In this document: in pieces, positions 10,153 through 20,810 of the stretch
Layout: each line of letters begins with the position of its first letter
Position numbering within the stretch: the first letter of the stretch is position 1
From: an uncultured Gammaproteobacteria bacterium
GTDB lineage: Bacteria > Pseudomonadota > Gammaproteobacteria > Arenicellales > JAANXG01
Direction: 5' to 3'
DNA: 33,380 nucleotides
Assembly: GCA_947259175.1 (NCBI GenBank)
Contig: CAMYKW010000004.1
Coordinates: 143,403 to 176,782, forward strand
Notes under the pieces: generated by a model
Database searches by the model: none
What the model was told of the DNA's origin: nothing
What the model saw: only the letters and a program-made list of their open reading frames with translations
Program-made: the position numbers and the translations under genes

Positions 10153-11032
10153 ATCTGACGGCAGTTGTGACCAGGCCGAGGGGCTGCGGCGCATGAATCG
10201 CGCCAAGACGACTCAGGTGTTGGCCGTTACCAGCGGCAAGGGCGGCGTCGGCAAAACCAGTGTATCGGTGAACCTGGGGGTGGCGATGTCCCGTTACGGC
10301 AAGTCGGTGATGGTCATGGATGCGGATCTCGGGCTGGCAAACGTCGACATCCTGCTGGGCCTGCAGCCGCGATTCAATTTGTCACACGTCATCGAACAGA
10401 AATGCGGCATGCGGGACGTGATTGTGCCGGGACCCGCCGGCATCAGAATCGTCCCCGGTTCGTCGGGCATCACCAAGATGGCGTCCCTGAGCGTGGTGCA
10501 GCAGGCGGCGTTAATCGATGCCTTCAATGACGTCGGCGGCGACCTGGACGTGCTGCTGGTGGATACCTCCGCGGGTATTGGTGATTCGGTGTCGGCGTTT
10601 GTCCGTGCCTGTCAGGAAGTCGTCGTGGTGGTGTGCGACGAGCCGGCCTCCATCACCGACTCGTATGCGCTGATAAAGGTGCTCAGCCGCGACTATGAGA
10701 TCAATCGGTTTCATATTCTGCCGAATAGGGTGTCCTCGGTTCAGCACGGACGCGAACTGTTCCACAAGTTGACCCGGGTCACCGATCGTTATCTCGATGT
10801 GGTGCTCGATTTCATGGGCGTCATTCCGGAAGACGATTACGTGAAAAAAGCGATACAGCAGCAGCAGAGCGTTGTCGAAAGGTTTCCCGGGAGCAGGTCC
10901 GCTATGGCCTTCCGGCGGCTTGCCAAGGAAGCGGATGGCTGGCGGCACTCCAACCGGCCCAATGGTCATTTTCAATTCTTCCTGGATCGGTTGATTCGCG
11001 ACAATGTCTCCGACGGTGGATTGAACGAATGA
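10145..11032 (+). CDS. flhG: Flagellar number regulator FlhG (FleN, MinD-like ATPase)
   Basis: FlhG is a MinD/ParA-type ATPase that limits flagellar number, in part by stimulating the FlhF GTPase and restraining the master regulator. I chose GTG 10145: it has AGGAGG at 10129-10134 and keeps an N-terminal DQAEGLRR (residues 9-16), equivalent to the DQAxxLR motif known to activate FlhF. ATG 10106 lies deep in flhF and ATG 10193 would remove the motif. The 295-aa product has a deviant Walker A GKGGVGKTS, then DADLGLANVDILLG and LLVDTSAGIGDSV. It also ends with an amphipathic stretch, FQFFLDRLIRDNV, like the membrane-targeting helix of MinD. The stop overlaps the fliA start (ATGA). Confidence 0.93.
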   Translation: MFESDGSCDQAEGLRRMNRAKTTQVLAVTSGKGGVGKTSVSVNLGVAMSRYGKSVMVMDADLGLANVDILLGLQPRFNLSHVIEQKCGMRDVIVPGPAGIRIVPGSSGITKMASLSVVQQAALIDAFNDVGGDLDVLLVDTSAGIGDSVSAFVRACQEVVVVVCDEPASITDSYALIKVLSRDYEINRFHILPNRVSSVQHGRELFHKLTRVTDRYLDVVLDFMGVIPEDDYVKKAIQQQQSVVERFPGSRSAMAFRRLAKEADGWRHSNRPNGHFQFFLDRLIRDNVSDGGLNE

Positions 11033-11742
11033 CTGGGATCGCGGCCTACGCTCCGTCAGCGGCGGGCGATCAAGTTGACATCATGGAATACGCGGGGCTG
11101 GTGAAACGCGTGGCGAACCACATGATATGCAGGCTGCCGGCGAATGTGCAGATGGACGACCTCATCCAGGCCGGATTGATCGCATTGATGGAAGCGGCAA
11201 AGCAATATGATCCCGATCAGGGTGCGACTTTCGAGACCTACGCCACAATCCGCGTGCGCGGGGCGATGCTGGATGAGGTGCGCCACAACAACTGGGCGCC
11301 GCGCTCGGTGTTTCGCAAGGCGCGAATGCTTGCAAGCGCGGTGCGCGATGTTGAGAACCAACATGGCCGCGACGCGCGTCCCGCGGAAGTCGCCGCGGCG
11401 CTGAACATCACCCTGGACGAATACTATGAACTGCTCTCGGAGGCGAACTGCCACGCGTTGCTGAGCATCGACGCTTCGGGTTGTATGGAACACGAACAGG
11501 ACCGTACCGCGGATCCCTACCGTGAAATCGAGGAACAGGAATTCAAACAAGCCCTCGCGGAACGCATAACCGATCTGCCGGAACGTGAACGCCTGGTGCT
11601 CGCGCTGTACTACGATCAGGAGCTCAACCTGCGGGAAATCGGCGAAGTGCTGGGGGTCAGTGAATCCCGCGTGTGTCAGATACACAGCCAGGCTACTTTG
11701 CGGCTGCGCGCGCGCATGAGCGAATGGTTTGAACGAGATTAA
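11029..11742 (+). CDS. fliA: Flagellar sigma factor FliA (sigma-28)
   Basis: FliA directs RNA polymerase to late flagellar promoters such as those of flagellin and motor genes. The 237-aa product has region 2 (YAGLVKRVANHMICRLPANVQMDDLIQAG and the FETYATIRVRGAMLDEVR helix), region 3 (ARPAEVAAALNITLDEYYELL) and region 4 with the HTH LNLREIGEVLGVSESRVCQI. It shares 4 bases with flhG. Its presence supports the sigma-28 promoter found 4.6 kb downstream at 16361-16387. No anti-sigma factor FlgM is encoded nearby. Confidence 0.96.
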   Translation: MTGIAAYAPSAAGDQVDIMEYAGLVKRVANHMICRLPANVQMDDLIQAGLIALMEAAKQYDPDQGATFETYATIRVRGAMLDEVRHNNWAPRSVFRKARMLASAVRDVENQHGRDARPAEVAAALNITLDEYYELLSEANCHALLSIDASGCMEHEQDRTADPYREIEEQEFKQALAERITDLPERERLVLALYYDQELNLREIGEVLGVSESRVCQIHSQATLRLRARMSEWFERD

Positions 11743-16253: not shown

Positions 16254-16333
16254 GGAACCTCTGATTAATGCAGAGGTTCCGCCGGTACAGGGATGTACCG
16301 ACATAGATCAATCACCTATGTGGTTGATCTATG
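16254..16333. repeat. Array of three perfect hairpins
   Basis: Three inverted repeats follow each other with almost no spacer. GGAACCTCTG (16254-16263) pairs with CAGAGGTTCC (16271-16280) around a 7-nt loop. CGGTACA (16283-16289) pairs with TGTACCG (16294-16300) around GGGA. CATAGATCAA (16302-16311) pairs with TTGATCTATG (16324-16333) around 12 nt. None is followed by a T-run, so they are not typical rho-independent terminators. They lie 28-107 bases before the sigma-28 promoter and could be operators, a transcription barrier or a small mobile-element remnant. Confidence 0.8.
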
Positions 16334-16360: not shown

Positions 16361-16387
16361 TAAAGTTCCCGGTGCAGCGGCCGATAA
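16361..16387 (+). promoter_or_regulatory. Sigma-28 (FliA) promoter of the repeat protein gene
   Basis: TAAAGTTC (16361-16368), an 11-base spacer and GCCGATAA (16380-16387) reproduce the FliA consensus TAAAGTTT-N11-GCCGATAA with one mismatch. The start of transcription should be near 16394, about 50 bases before the ATG at 16447. A match this close is rare by chance and marks the downstream gene as a late flagellar gene, expressed after hook completion. Confidence 0.88.
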
Positions 16388-16446
16388 CACCTTGGGGAGG
16401 GTCCGTGCCGGGCCCGTTCAGTACAGTTTACGCAAGAGGAAGGTCG

Positions 16447-18774
16447 ATGATTTCGGGGATCGGAAGTTTTCCGTTCGTGTCCGTCATCAGCGCGTATCAA
16501 AACGACGCGCGCAGCGAGCCGTTGCGTCTTCCCGAACCGGAACTGCGCACCGATGAGCTGAAACAGTCATTTCGCGACATCGTCGCGCTGCGCACTTCGC
16601 TGGAAGCGCTGGTCGATGCGCTGGGCGTGCGGCGGTCGAGCGGGGAGACCCTGCCGGCGGCGGTGAGCTCCAAGGTCCTGGGGCTCAACATGAATGCCAG
16701 CCCGGCGCAAAATGTCCTCACCGCGCCGGAGATCAACGCCACCCCGACCTCGATTGCGCCCTTCGGTCCCACGTTTGCCGGCGCCTCCACCACGTTGCCG
16801 GAGATCGACGGCGCCTACACCGGGGCCGCCGACGACACCTTTACCTTCAAGGCCCAGGACAACGGCGCCATCGGCGGCACCAAGCGGCTGCGCTTCGAGG
16901 TGCGCAACGGCGCCGGTCAGAAGATCGACCAGATTATCATCCCCGAGAACACCCCCGCGGATACCCAATTTGCCCTCAGCAACGGCCTGGTGGCGTCATT
17001 CTCGGCAGGTGACGTGGTCAAGAACGACACCTTTCAAGTGCAGGCGTTCGCCAACATCGGCAGCGTCGTCGACCCGGATAAACCGTTCGACGGCGTGCGT
17101 GACAACCGGCCGAATTTCGAGTTCGGCAAGTCGGTCACTGCGGGCAGCTTCGACGTCAACGGGGTCACGCTTCAGGTGTACGCCAACGACACCATCAACA
17201 CGGTGCTGGATCGTATCAACCAGTCCGGCACCGGCGTGCAGGCGGTTTTCAACGCCGCCGGCGAATCGATCAGCCTGACGCAGGAGGGCTTCGGCCCGCT
17301 GGCCTTCACCCTGGACAACGATAGCTCGGGTTTCTTGAGCGCCACCAAGCTCGGCGGAGCCAGCGATCTGATCTTCAGCACCCTGACCTCGAGCGAGGTC
17401 AACGCCACCGCGACCTCCCTGGGGCCGTTCGGGCCGGCGTTTGCCGGCGCCTCCACCGCGTTGGCGACAGTGGGCGGGGTATACACCGGCAGCACCAACG
17501 ATTCCTTAAGCTTCGAGGTCAAGAAAGGCGGCACGGTCGGCAGTAACGATCAGATCAAACTGGACGTGCGCGACGGCACCGGCAGCAAGATCGACCAGAT
17601 CGTGATCAACCCGGGCACCCCCGCCGACACCGCGTTCACCCTGGACAACGGCGTCACGGTGTCGTTCTCCGCCGGTGATCTGGTCAAAGACGACACCTTT
17701 GCGGTCAACGTATTCGCCACCGTCGGCAGCGTGGTCGATCCCGACAAGCCGTTCAACGGCACCCGTAACGACAACCCGAACTTCGACGCCGGTAAGTCGG
17801 TTACCGCCGGCAGCTTCACCGTCAACGGTGTGAGCATCGACGTTTTCGCCAACGATACCATTAACACGGTGCTGGATCGCATCAACGCTTCGGCGGCGGG
17901 CGTCGAGGCCAATTTCTATGCCGGAGCGGAGATCGTACAACTGCGGCAGACTACCGCGGGGCCCGTCGACATCACGGTGGGCAACGACACCTCGGGTTTT
18001 CTCGACGCCGTCAAGCTGCTCGGGAAGACCGCGGAGCTCGGCACGTATATTCCCAGCGATGCGGATAGCGCGCTGTCCGGCGTCAGCCAGTTCTCGGGGA
18101 TTACCGCGGGGACCTTTACCGTCAATGGCGTGTCGATCGGCGTCGATCCGGACAGCGACTCGTTGCTCGACGTGCTCGATCGCATCAACTTCTCCGGCGC
18201 CGGGGTGAATGCGGTGCTCGATCCGTCGGGCAGCCAGGTGAGCTTCCAGGCCTCCGACCAGGTCACTCCCATCGTGCTGGCCGACGGTAACGCCAACTTC
18301 TTCACCGCCCTGGGCATTACGCCCGGGACCTATGCACCGACGATCACCAAGTCCGGCGGCAAGGTACGCGCCCACAGCGCCACCGAGCTGTTGAAGGATG
18401 CCGCCGACGCTTTGAACGGCCTGTACCGGCAGACCACGCAGTCCGCCACCGTGCTCGGTGTGCGCAACGATCTGCAATCCATCATCCAGGACGTGTTCGA
18501 TAACGACGCGCCTGTGCTGCGCACCGACTTCGGCGTCTCCTTCGACTTCCGACAGCAAGCCAACCATATCTTCTCGTTCTTCGGCAGCGAGCAGGCGAGA
18601 TTCCGGGGAGCCTTGCGCAGCGATCTCGACACCGTGCGCGACTTCTTCCTCGAGCCGCGCACGGGAGAAGAACTCGGCTTCGCGCAAAAGCTGATTGAGC
18701 GCCTGCAAGCCGCGGAATCCGATATCCAAGGCAAACTGGGTTCCGTCGGTCTGTTCGTGTCCGTGTTCGCTTGA
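16447..18774 (+). CDS. Putative late flagellar axial or secreted protein with hook_IN repeats
   Basis: The 775-aa product starts at ATG 16447 after GAGGAAGG. It has no Cys and no Trp, no signal peptide and no membrane segment, like proteins exported through the flagellar channel. Residues of about 97-318 and 319-540 are two copies of a 222-aa unit. Each has an NATxTSxxPFGPxFAGAST start, a beta-rich part (KIDQI, FSAGDxVKxDTF, GSVVDPDKPF) and a hook_IN-like motif (KSVTAGSF.VNGV.., then NDTINTVLDRIN) at about 228-300 and 450-522. A third hook_IN-like motif stands alone at about 552-620. The C-terminal 110 residues are helical and unlike the FliD, FlgK or flagellin termini I know. It could be a filament-associated, cap-like or surface-exposed secreted protein; FliD itself is unlikely because FliD_N and FliD_C are not evident. 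Confidence 0.82.
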   Translation: MISGIGSFPFVSVISAYQNDARSEPLRLPEPELRTDELKQSFRDIVALRTSLEALVDALGVRRSSGETLPAAVSSKVLGLNMNASPAQNVLTAPEINATPTSIAPFGPTFAGASTTLPEIDGAYTGAADDTFTFKAQDNGAIGGTKRLRFEVRNGAGQKIDQIIIPENTPADTQFALSNGLVASFSAGDVVKNDTFQVQAFANIGSVVDPDKPFDGVRDNRPNFEFGKSVTAGSFDVNGVTLQVYANDTINTVLDRINQSGTGVQAVFNAAGESISLTQEGFGPLAFTLDNDSSGFLSATKLGGASDLIFSTLTSSEVNATATSLGPFGPAFAGASTALATVGGVYTGSTNDSLSFEVKKGGTVGSNDQIKLDVRDGTGSKIDQIVINPGTPADTAFTLDNGVTVSFSAGDLVKDDTFAVNVFATVGSVVDPDKPFNGTRNDNPNFDAGKSVTAGSFTVNGVSIDVFANDTINTVLDRINASAAGVEANFYAGAEIVQLRQTTAGPVDITVGNDTSGFLDAVKLLGKTAELGTYIPSDADSALSGVSQFSGITAGTFTVNGVSIGVDPDSDSLLDVLDRINFSGAGVNAVLDPSGSQVSFQASDQVTPIVLADGNANFFTALGITPGTYAPTITKSGGKVRAHSATELLKDAADALNGLYRQTTQSATVLGVRNDLQSIIQDVFDNDAPVLRTDFGVSFDFRQQANHIFSFFGSEQARFRGALRSDLDTVRDFFLEPRTGEELGFAQKLIERLQAAESDIQGKLGSVGLFVSVFA

Positions 18775-18958: not shown

Positions 18959-20002
18959 TCAGTCCACGGAACCGCCTGTGTGCCGGATCATGGCGGCGAT
19001 GCTGTCACTGGCGTTGATGGCCCGCAGTTGAATGCTTGGATGCTGTGAAGTGAACACCCGGAATACTTCGTCAGCGAATCCTTGACCCAGGTATTTGACG
19101 TCCCGCATATCGAGCTCGATTTCTGAGAACTTGTCCAGGTTGAGAAGCAACCGCTTGGCTTCAGACCGTGACACATATTCGTTCTGCAGGAGTTTGACCA
19201 AAACCCGGGTCTTCTGAAACTGGTAATCGTATGCCTCGGGAGCGAACTCGGCGAAAACCGCCTTCAGTTGTGTACGGGAATCACGGTAGATTTCGAACAA
19301 GACGGTAGTGCCCTTTTTGAAACGGGGCGTCGAGACAAATACGTCGTCACGCGCACGGCTCCATTCGATTTGAATCTTGTGGGATCTTAGCACCAGGCGA
19401 TCCGCCGCGCGGGCGGTGAAAAAGATTCCTTCCCCGGAATGTTCCTCGGGCATGGTAGTGGTTTTGCCCTTCACGAGTTCGATCATCGCCGCCGGTTCGT
19501 CGGACAAGTCGAGCTTGTCGGCGATAGACCGGAACACACCAATACCGGTTTCTCGCACCTCGAAGGATAGTTTTCCGGCTTCCAGGCGCACCTCGATATG
19601 GCAACGATCCGCCTGGGAATGGTCAATGGCATTGTTGAGCATCTCGGTGAAGGCGTAGCGGACGATGTTCTCCACGTTGGGGCGCAGTTGCCGCGCAAGG
19701 TTTAAGGTGAGGGCAACACGTTCATACACTTCGGCCTCATCGAGACCGCTAAGATGAAAAACCGTCGAGAAGACGTCGGGTGAAGGCGCTGCAGTGGCGG
19801 GATAGTAACGGGCGCCACGGGTCGAACCGGTCTTGACAATCTCTCCTCGCTCAATCAGCTGCCGAAGATGTAGATTGATGGCCTGGCGCGTGATGTTCAG
19901 GTGTTTAGCCAGGTCCGTACTGGTCGCTGATCCTTGCCGGTCCACAAAGGCGAGGATCGCGTCGGGAGTCGATAAGGCGCGTGGCTTGGAACGTTTTGAC
20001 AA
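18959..20002 (-). CDS. Winged-HTH / HATPase / DUF4325 regulatory protein
   Basis: The 347-aa product joins three parts. Residues 10-70 are a winged helix-turn-helix (TPDAILAFVDRQGSATSTDL and LNITRQAINLHLRQLIERGEI). Residues of about 95-235 form a GHKL-type ATPase fold with N-box FTEMLNNAIDHS, a G1-like RETGIGVF and G2-like EEHSGEGIFF; the usual Asp-Asn of the G1 box is Glu-Thr. Residues of about 240-345 match the STAS-like DUF4325 (LLLNLDKFSEIELDMRDVKYLGQGFADEVFRVF). This resembles a DNA-binding protein with an anti-sigma-factor-like kinase and anti-anti-sigma module in one chain; the function is unknown. Translation seems to begin at TTG 20002 without a clear ribosome-binding site. The gene and its upstream DNA are more AT-rich than the neighbours. 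Confidence 0.85.
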   Translation of the reverse strand: MSKRSKPRALSTPDAILAFVDRQGSATSTDLAKHLNITRQAINLHLRQLIERGEIVKTGSTRGARYYPATAAPSPDVFSTVFHLSGLDEAEVYERVALTLNLARQLRPNVENIVRYAFTEMLNNAIDHSQADRCHIEVRLEAGKLSFEVRETGIGVFRSIADKLDLSDEPAAMIELVKGKTTTMPEEHSGEGIFFTARAADRLVLRSHKIQIEWSRARDDVFVSTPRFKKGTTVLFEIYRDSRTQLKAVFAEFAPEAYDYQFQKTRVLVKLLQNEYVSRSEAKRLLLNLDKFSEIELDMRDVKYLGQGFADEVFRVFTSQHPSIQLRAINASDSIAAMIRHTGGSVD

Positions 20003-20102: not shown

Positions 20103-20330
20103 GTTCACTGCGTGAATGACAGTTGGTCTTGTCCATTCCTACGACACTCTAGGAGCCTCTCTGATACGCGGCAGGTCTTGATTCGGCCACCGCGACGTCC
20201 ATAGCCAAAAAGGGGTCGATGCTGGGCACCAATGTCTTAGGGCTAGGGGGCGGCGCTGTTACGCTTGCTCTGTTTGATTGCTGCAGATCGAGGCTTGACC
20301 CCACCTTGCCGTGGTTTGCAGAATGTAGCA

Positions 20331-20810
20331 ATGAAAGATCTGCCCCCATCTTCGGAAACAAGCTATAACGCCGGCAGCCCGATCAGGATAGGCCGGCACG
20401 CCTATCATCACTACGCGATTATTTCGGATCGCGTCGCGGATGGTAAGCCGATGCTCATTTCACTGAGTTACCGTACCGGCACCGTGGCCGAAGAGCGTTG
20501 GGATAACGTTGTGCGCGGTCGCAGTGTGCGGCCGAGTAGGCTGATATCGGACATTTCGCCGGCACAGGTCGTCGAACGTGCCCGTGCCCAGATTGGCCGG
20601 CGGCGTTACAACCTGCTGACCAGCAACTGTGAGCATTTCGTGCGCGATATGCTGGGACTGCCGGCACGCAGCCGACAGCTTAGCGCCGCCGCGGGCGTCG
20701 GCATTACCGCGTTATTACTCGCGTTGCGTATGGCGCGAGGCCATCCCGCCATCGCCATCGCGAGCACCGTTGCCGGGCTAATGATCGGATCGCGATTCTC
20801 CGCAAAGTAA
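20331..20810 (+). CDS. LRAT-domain (NlpC/P60 superfamily) small membrane protein
   Basis: The 159-aa product has the lecithin:retinol acyltransferase-like core of the permuted papain fold. The catalytic His candidate is in RHAYHHYAII (H26/H27), and the nucleophile is C100 in the hallmark NCEHFV (99-104). A hydrophobic tail follows (about 119-153, AAGVGITALLLALRM and AIAIASTVAGLMIGS) and should anchor it in the membrane. Eukaryotic relatives are acyltransferases or phospholipases; the bacterial role is not established. ATG 20331 is the start that fits best. It lies between the wHTH/HATPase gene (divergent) and tRNA-Leu, in an islet unrelated to the flanking flagellar and housekeeping genes. 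Confidence 0.8.
   Translation: MKDLPPSSETSYNAGSPIRIGRHAYHHYAIISDRVADGKPMLISLSYRTGTVAEERWDNVVRGRSVRPSRLISDISPAQVVERARAQIGRRRYNLLTSNCEHFVRDMLGLPARSRQLSAAAGVGITALLLALRMARGHPAIAIASTVAGLMIGSRFSAK

What the first reader, a model, noticed from the sequence alone, without database searches (positions are those of the whole stretch)
16361..18774. A sigma-28-controlled, Cys/Trp-free hook_IN repeat protein that is not a recognisable flagellin, FlgK, FlgL or FliD
Seen: a FliA promoter (TAAAGTTC-N11-GCCGATAA) about 50 bases upstream of a 775-aa ORF with no Cys, no Trp, no Sec signal and three hook_IN-like motifs. Known: hook_IN motifs occur in flagellin- and hook-associated axial proteins, and FliA drives late export substrates. 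Inferred: this is an additional late flagellar protein, possibly a filament cap or sheath-like component, or a surface adhesin exported by the flagellar channel. The termini do not look like known axial families.
Basis: partly seen in the sequence, partly recalled or inferred. Interest (0 to 1): 0.78.

Follow-up and report, generated by a model that had tools for sequence, protein, structure and literature searches.

The report
Accessory relative of flagellar cap protein
A bacterial gene with a near-perfect flagellar-late promoter encodes an extra protein distantly related to the flagellum's tip cap but without the parts that grip the filament, so it is probably a dispensable accessory of the flagellum whose exact job is untested.

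Summary
An exact sigma-28 (FliA) site (16361-16387) lies 59 bases before a 775-aa, Cys/Trp-free ORF (16447-18774) with three Flagellin_IN stretches, 4.6 kb downstream of fliA. The genome encodes ordinary FlgK, FlgL, FliC, FlaG, FliD and FliS elsewhere on the contig, so this protein is extra. Relatives were found in 22 genomes. In the nearest 14 genomes, 14 have a sigma-28-like site (12 with at most 3 of 15 mismatches); of 8 more distant ones, none has a site at that level. dN/dS to the orthologue is 0.16. It lacks FliD_N and the roughly 70-residue C-terminal end of FliD, so it should not be called FliD. The 775-aa form contains a 222-aa internal duplication of a ~550-aa family. Best reading: a dispensable late flagellar substrate, a FliD-derived head-like protein without legs, acting at or near the tip or released outside. 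Export and site of action are inferred. New variant of a known kind.

The parts
16361..16387 (+). sigma-28 (FliA) promoter, TAAAGTTC-N11-GCCGATAA
   Evidence: exact match, only one in window; sites of 0-4 mismatches upstream in the 14 nearest genomes, this one included
16436..16443 (+). ribosome-binding site GAGGAAGG
   Evidence: sequence read directly
16447..18774 (+). 775-aa FliD-related hook_IN repeat protein
   Evidence: translation; purifying selection dN/dS 0.158 against the orthologue
16549..16620 (+). N-terminal helix, residues 35-58, aligned with a helix-like stretch in the family; no detectable FliD_N similarity
   Evidence: secondary structure from a low-confidence model; family alignment and profile comparison
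16729..17394 (+). internal repeat 1 (residues 95-316): beta-rich module plus hook_IN 1
   Evidence: 222-aa period, 55% aa identity to repeat 2; Flagellin_IN at 17137-17280
17395..18060 (+). internal repeat 2 (residues 317-538): beta-rich module plus hook_IN 2
   Evidence: Flagellin_IN at 17809-17925
18103..18246 (+). third hook_IN-like motif (about residues 553-600)
   Evidence: Pfam reports three stretches; limits set by eye from the family alignment; not among the genome-search matches
18364..18714 (+). C-terminal helical domain (about residues 640-756) related to the FliD D1 C-terminal half
   Evidence: hhalign E 1.8e-5 against 60 FliDs, controls far lower; alignment shown; domain start set by eye
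18715..18771 (+). 19-residue tail, where FliD continues for roughly 70 residues; family motif LG.sG..vDT.A
11029..11742 (+). fliA (sigma-28), regions 2, 3 and 4
   Evidence: Pfam

Best explanation
It is an accessory late flagellar protein of FliD descent. Sigma-28, encoded 4.6 kb upstream, transcribes it once FlgM is exported (shown: promoter sequence and its conservation; inferred: regulation). The product is probably exported by the flagellar type III apparatus (inferred: no visible Sec signal, no Cys, FliD relatedness). It keeps and multiplies the FliD head modules (hook_IN) and part of the FliD helical leg domain, but lacks FliD_N and the C-terminal end that form the FliD coiled coil engaging the filament. 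It is therefore unlikely to cap a filament as FliD does; most likely it associates with the cap or with the filament surface, or is released at the tip, adding an adhesive or protective surface (inferred).
For: Exact sigma-28 site. In the 14 nearest genomes the best upstream match has 0-4 of 15 mismatches (12 with at most 3; in 11 no shuffle of 200 was as good, in the others 2, 3 and 8), although neighbouring genes mostly differ. Own flagellin has a comparable site with the same spacing. Carriers track flagella: in family f172, 11 of 12 carriers have FliD over the cut-off against 23 of 89 non-carriers, Fisher p 1.7e-5, not corrected for kinship; 18 of 22 carriers have a Flagellin_N match and a 19th has FliD. 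FliD relatedness: 21 relatives against 60 FliDs, 237 aligned columns, score 73.0, E 2.9e-8 (reversed FliD 21.1, flagellin 22.4, FlgL 18.9; best of 39 column shuffles 20.7); C-terminal domain alone 43.7, E 1.8e-5 (reversed 18.5, flagellin 15.8, FlgL 14.5; best of 38 shuffles 21.6). Missing ends: no FliD_N hit, where the same genome's FliD scores 5.6e-28; 19 residues after the aligned end against 72 in FliD L092 and a median near 74 by proportional mapping. Purifying selection, dN/dS 0.158. PMC8533109 (abstract sentence and passages): exchanging FliD helix alpha1, alpha5 or alpha6 impairs motility, while heads are interchangeable.
Against: None of 8 more distant relatives has a strict-pattern site with 3 or fewer mismatches; two (L143, L146) have 4, one of them inside the coding region. 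With a relaxed pattern, L149 and L152 show one-mismatch matches that 7 and 4 of 150 shuffles equal, undecided; the other six are at chance. Flagellins of three of those eight genomes do match the relaxed pattern. Three of 22 carriers (G979, G987, G1040; fragmented drafts) show no flagellin match; FliD was not sought in them. Most flagellated genomes lack the gene: 23 of 34 FliD-positive f172 genomes, and 2 of 4 flagellin-positive among 12 f1 genomes tested, so it is dispensable. Nothing here shows export or location. AlphaFold models were poor (mean pLDDT 44.2 and 41.6) and the structure search of the full model found nothing at E <= 0.001. With only 13 relatives the C-terminal match was not decisive: against the FliD C-terminal part it scored 22.9 and the reversed control 25.9. 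The N-terminus shows no FliD relatedness.
Confidence: 0.5

Rival explanations
1. It is a soluble adhesin or other extracellular protein that merely borrows the flagellar channel and sigma-28, like the flagellum-secreted non-flagellar proteins of Campylobacter, and never joins the filament or cap.
For: No FliD-type filament-docking ends; repeat-rich and duplicated beta modules; precedent of non-flagellar proteins leaving by the flagellar apparatus (PMC2764114 and PMC5223770, starts of abstracts).
Against: The conserved FliD D1-like helical domain and terminal motif would be unnecessary for a free adhesin; no known adhesion domain among the Pfam hits.
Confidence: 0.3
2. It is an ordinary FliD, a second filament cap with enlarged head domains.
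For: FliD relatedness of the hook_IN and C-terminal parts; FliD_C-matching frames of about 780 aa occur in family f218.
Against: No FliD_N; FliD_C in only 2 of 12 members, best E 0.04; all 21 aligned members end at the same tail motif, by eye; the genome already has a complete FliD beside FliS.
Confidence: 0.05
3. It acts inside the cell or periplasm, for example as a late checkpoint or chaperone for FliD or flagellin, and is not exported.
For: Lacks the axial terminal helices that carry export signals in classical late substrates (recalled); most distant relatives show no sigma-28 site.
Against: hook_IN modules are otherwise known from exported axial proteins (recalled; Pfam name); no Cys in the 23 family sequences counted, usual for exported axial proteins (recalled).
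Confidence: 0.12
4. It is a decaying duplicate of an axial gene without function.
For: Patchy distribution; a truncated copy in G003.
Against: dN/dS 0.158 overall and 0.10-0.25 in the five segments; promoter conserved while neighbours differ; long open frames in several families.
Confidence: 0.03

Closest known systems
FliD (flagellar filament cap, HAP2; Pfam FliD_N, Flagellin_IN, FliD_C)
   Same: Late flagellar gene; hook_IN motif followed by a C-terminal helical domain with the FliD D1 pattern, aligned over 237 profile columns.
   Different: No FliD_N, no FliD C-terminal end, several hook_IN motifs and an extra repeated beta module; coexists with a normal FliD.
FlgL/FlgK hook-filament junction proteins with hook_IN inserts (for example R. 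sphaeroides FlgK1, passages of PMC7277832)
   Same: Multiple hook_IN motifs thought to arise by internal duplication; weak NCBIfam match to an FlgL model through the repeats, far below its cut-off.
   Different: No Flagellin_N/Flagellin_C or FlgK domains; profile comparison with 11 FlgL-type sequences fails; FlgK was not compared by profile.
Sigma-28-dependent proteins secreted through the flagellum in Campylobacter (recalled; starts of abstracts)
   Same: Late flagellar regulation without being part of the core filament is a known pattern.
   Different: No sequence relation was tested.

Membership tests
FliD filament cap | FliD_N (PF02465) N-terminal domain | tested here: not met
   No hit in the window protein and not among the families matched by 12 members; control: own FliD 5.6e-28. 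Profile comparison of N-termini also fails.
FliD filament cap | FliD_C (PF07195) over the curated cut-off | tested here: not met
   No hit in the window protein; 2 of 12 members, best E 0.04. Profile-profile comparison supports remote homology of part of it.
FliD filament cap | C-terminal end of the coiled coil docking on the filament | tested here: not met
   Protein ends 19 residues after the aligned D1 part; FliD goes on for about 70. That this end is the coiled coil is from PMC7316729 and PMC8533109 passages.
FliD filament cap | hook_IN motif | tested here: met
   Flagellin_IN E 8.5e-10, three stretches; 11 of 12 members.
FliD filament cap | Oligomeric cap at filament tip | not testable with these tools
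   Needs microscopy or biochemistry.
Flagellin / FlgL | Flagellin_N and Flagellin_C domains | tested here: not met
   None; the Flagellin_N search of the genome gives two other places, which are FliC and FlgL; profile scores at control level.
Sigma-28 regulon | Conserved sigma-28 promoter | tested here: met
   Exact in the window, 0-4 mismatches in the 14 nearest genomes; but none of 8 distant relatives at 3 or fewer mismatches, two undecided with a relaxed pattern. Expression not tested.
Flagellar type III export substrate | fliH/fliI/flhA-dependent export | not testable with these tools
   No bench data.

The most novel reading that the evidence does not exclude
A legless FliD relative: an exported protein that docks through head and D1 contacts on the normal FliD cap, forming a second, removable layer at the flagellar tip, so that some bacteria carry a two-protein cap whose outer layer can change surface contact without touching filament assembly.
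Probability: 0.2. Interest if true: 0.75.

Novelty: new variant of a known kind. Interest (0 to 1): 0.48.

Why it matters
FliD is usually regarded as the only filament cap protein (recalled). A recurring, selected, sigma-28-controlled relative that keeps the head side and drops the filament-docking ends would suggest that tip function can be divided between two proteins, and it offers a natural test of which FliD parts serve assembly and which serve the outside world. It also gives a family that the three libraries scanned with it (Pfam, NCBIfam, PHROGs) do not name.

Tried and rejected
Single-sequence and shallow searches: Pfam finds only hook_IN above its cut-off, NCBIfam only FlgL/FliD models far below cut-off, PHROGs and the solved-structure sequences nothing convincing. 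Scan of viral contigs: none of 109 pattern matches encodes a relative; plasmids: only a Thermomicrobium FliD, residues 183-652 of the query. The one scan of genome contigs found only the orthologue already known. AlphaFold with two sequences: unusable confidence; Foldseek on the full-length model gave nothing at E <= 0.001; the C-terminal model was not searched. First profile comparison with a narrow FliD set (31) failed; with 13 relatives and 60 FliDs the whole protein matched (E 2.2e-5) but the C-terminus was equivocal (27.7 against the whole FliD profile, reversed 23.4; 22.9 against its C-terminal part, reversed 25.9); it became clear with 21 relatives. Two hhalign runs failed and could have left old scores; one search repeated the comparisons with a guard: the real and reversed scores were the same, and 5 of 140 shuffle runs failed and were left out. 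Conserved gene neighbourhood: looked for and not found; a family-2 glycosyltransferase lies upstream in 3 of 15 loci, two of which share further neighbours; neighbours of the distant relatives were only read by eye. The FliC and FlgL control sets are smaller (18 and 11) than the FliD set (60); one FliC row (69 aa) and one FliD row (128 aa) are wrong frames and were kept. Partial relatives L030, L031 and L152 were left out of the family alignment; L024, without upstream DNA, was left out of the promoter count (its genome is counted through L031). A resemblance of the C-terminal tail motif to YjfB-type motility proteins came to mind (recalled) and was only searched for in papers, without result.

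Full report
Observation. The window lies on a 177-kb contig of a 4.18-Mb draft genome. The E. coli-type FliA consensus (recalled) matches exactly once in the window, at 16361-16387; no other position on either strand has 1 to 3 mismatches, and about 1e-5 exact matches are expected by chance. The -10 end is 59 bases before ATG 16447, which follows GAGGAAGG. The ORF is 775 aa without Cys or Trp and has three Flagellin_IN stretches (E 8.5e-10). Upstream in the window lie a FliK-domain ORF, fliL, fliM, flhB, flhA, an SRP54-type GTPase gene (flhF by position), a ParA/MinD-type gene (flhG by position) and fliA.

It is an extra protein. About 13-23 kb before the window start the same contig encodes FlgK, FlgL, FliC, FlaG, FliD and FliS, all recognised by Pfam; FliD_C rings once in the genome and Flagellin_N twice. 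The own flagellin carries a comparable sigma-28 site with the same spacing.

Relatives. A full-length orthologue (72%) occurs in one other genome of the genus, 30 kb or more from that genome's flagellin and FlgL-type genes on the same contig, with a truncated C-terminal copy on another contig; the contig is that of an uncultured gammaproteobacterium. In the order, 2 of 109 genomes match; in a class sample, 3 of 369, one of them (G431) only through a short stretch at E 9.7e-4; in family f172, 12 of 101; in that family's order, 20 of 386, including those 12. Leaving out G431, this gives 22 genomes. A phylum sample (27 of 398 matching) added, beyond the window's own genome, only matches within model positions 224-403, the repeat region, several of them in frames that the FliD_C search also finds. 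Full-length relatives outside this genus are 541-562 aa. The 775-aa form arose by duplication of a 222-residue unit (55% aa identity between copies) before the two species of this genus split, because corresponding copies are about 75% identical between species. dN/dS between the orthologues is 0.158, and 0.10-0.25 in each of five segments.

Regulation. In the 14 genomes of genus g1 and family f172 that carry the gene, the best match upstream has 0-4 mismatches of 15 (12 with at most 3). In 11 no shuffle of 200 was as good; in L029, L020 and L021 2, 3 and 8 were. The two with 4 mismatches have it where their close relatives have better ones. Neighbouring genes are mostly unrelated. As a positive control, 18 flagellin loci were scanned: 4 gave no start by my motif, and of the other 14, 12 have their best match 94-101 bases before the start, with 1-5 mismatches; the four genus g1 flagellins, including this genome's, each have a relaxed-pattern match. 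None of the eight more distant relatives has a strict match with 3 or fewer mismatches (4-7; the 4 of L146 lies inside the coding region). With a relaxed pattern, needed because the f279 flagellins deviate from the strict one, six of the eight are at chance and L149 and L152 have one-mismatch matches equalled by 7 and 4 of 150 shuffles, which I leave undecided; these two come from genomes without a flagellin match (G987, G1040). Sigma-28 control is therefore shown only for part of the family.

Link to flagella. In f172, 11 of 12 carriers have FliD over the cut-off against 23 of 89 non-carriers (Fisher p 1.7e-5, not corrected for kinship); the exception, G566, has flagellin. Of 22 carriers, 18 have a Flagellin_N match; G549 lacks it but has FliD; G979, G987 and G1040 show none. 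Of 10 non-carriers of family f1 tested, 2 have a match and 8 do not. The gene is thus tied to flagella but dispensable for them.

What the protein is. Pfam scans of 12 members give FliD_C for only 2, at best E 0.04, and no FliD_N. Profile-profile comparison improves with depth: 13 relatives against 31 mostly close FliDs, only a hook_IN-level match at E 0.12; 13 against 60 FliDs, E 2.2e-5 over 262 columns, but the C-terminus alone not clearly above reversed decoys; 21 against 60, E 2.9e-8 over 237 columns, and the C-terminal 150 residues alone E 1.8e-5 with score 43.7 against 18.5 reversed, 15.8 flagellin and 14.5 FlgL. One search repeated these with a guard against failed runs: same scores; best shuffle 20.7 of 39 for the whole protein and 21.6 of 38 for the C-terminus. 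The alignment runs through the FliD D1 pattern (R..L, Gi..d, D...L...L, v..fl, Gl...l) and ends at P0001 residue 756. FliD goes on for about 70 residues (visible in the own FliD); this family ends 19 residues later with a shared motif, LG.sG..vDT.A. The N-terminus has a short similar segment and one helix-like stretch but no detectable FliD_N similarity. Secondary structure of the poor AlphaFold models has the helix-helix-strand-strand-helix-helix-helix order in the C-terminal domain; I give that little weight.

Mechanism. [quoted passage not shown] Passages of PMC7316729 and PMC12221982 place the D0 ends of FliD at the filament and flagellin contact. A protein that keeps the head modules and part of D1 but lacks both ends should not insert at the filament end. 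Shown: promoter sequence, its conservation, relatedness, missing ends, selection. Inferred: transcription by sigma-28, export, site of action. I favour an accessory at or near the tip or filament surface, with a free extracellular protein as the main rival.

Literature. Searches for hook_IN, FliD paralogues, FliD-like proteins and sigma-28-dependent secreted proteins listed no paper that, judged by title and start of abstract, describes such a family; most of these lists are only the top of longer ones, and the library holds open-licence papers only. R. sphaeroides FlgK1 has at least three hook_IN motifs attributed to internal duplication (passages of PMC7277832), so repeated hook_IN modules as such are known.

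Verdict. The claim that the ends fit no named family is right for single-sequence searches and for the N-terminus, wrong for the C-terminal domain. It is a FliD-related variant, not a FliD and not a categorically new kind.

Noticed in passing
window 18959-20002 (-): ORF combining a MarR/winged-helix domain, a histidine-kinase-type ATPase domain and a STAS-like DUF4325 domain, just downstream and convergent.
   Followed up: no
window 20265-20810 (+): Protein with a lecithin-retinol-acyltransferase (LRAT) domain, E 1e-11.
   Followed up: no
window 16254-16280 and 16302-16333: Two hairpins (10-nt arms 100% and 14-nt arms 93% complementary) shortly before the sigma-28 site; terminator or small mobile repeat not decided.
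   Followed up: partly
L015:5458-9378: A 1306-aa TPR plus double family-2 glycosyltransferase lies between flgL and the flagellin gene in the same genome, suggesting filament glycosylation; a 1773-aa multi-domain glycosyltransferase lies beside the orthologue in G003.
   Followed up: partly
L006:1273-1926: Truncated second copy (mainly the C-terminal domain) in G003, flanked by what look by eye like CheY-, HDOD- and CheA-type genes.
   Followed up: partly
family alignment, C-terminal 15 residues: Conserved tail LG.sG..(V/I/L)(D/N)T.A in most of 21 members, including distant ones; no explanation.
   Followed up: no
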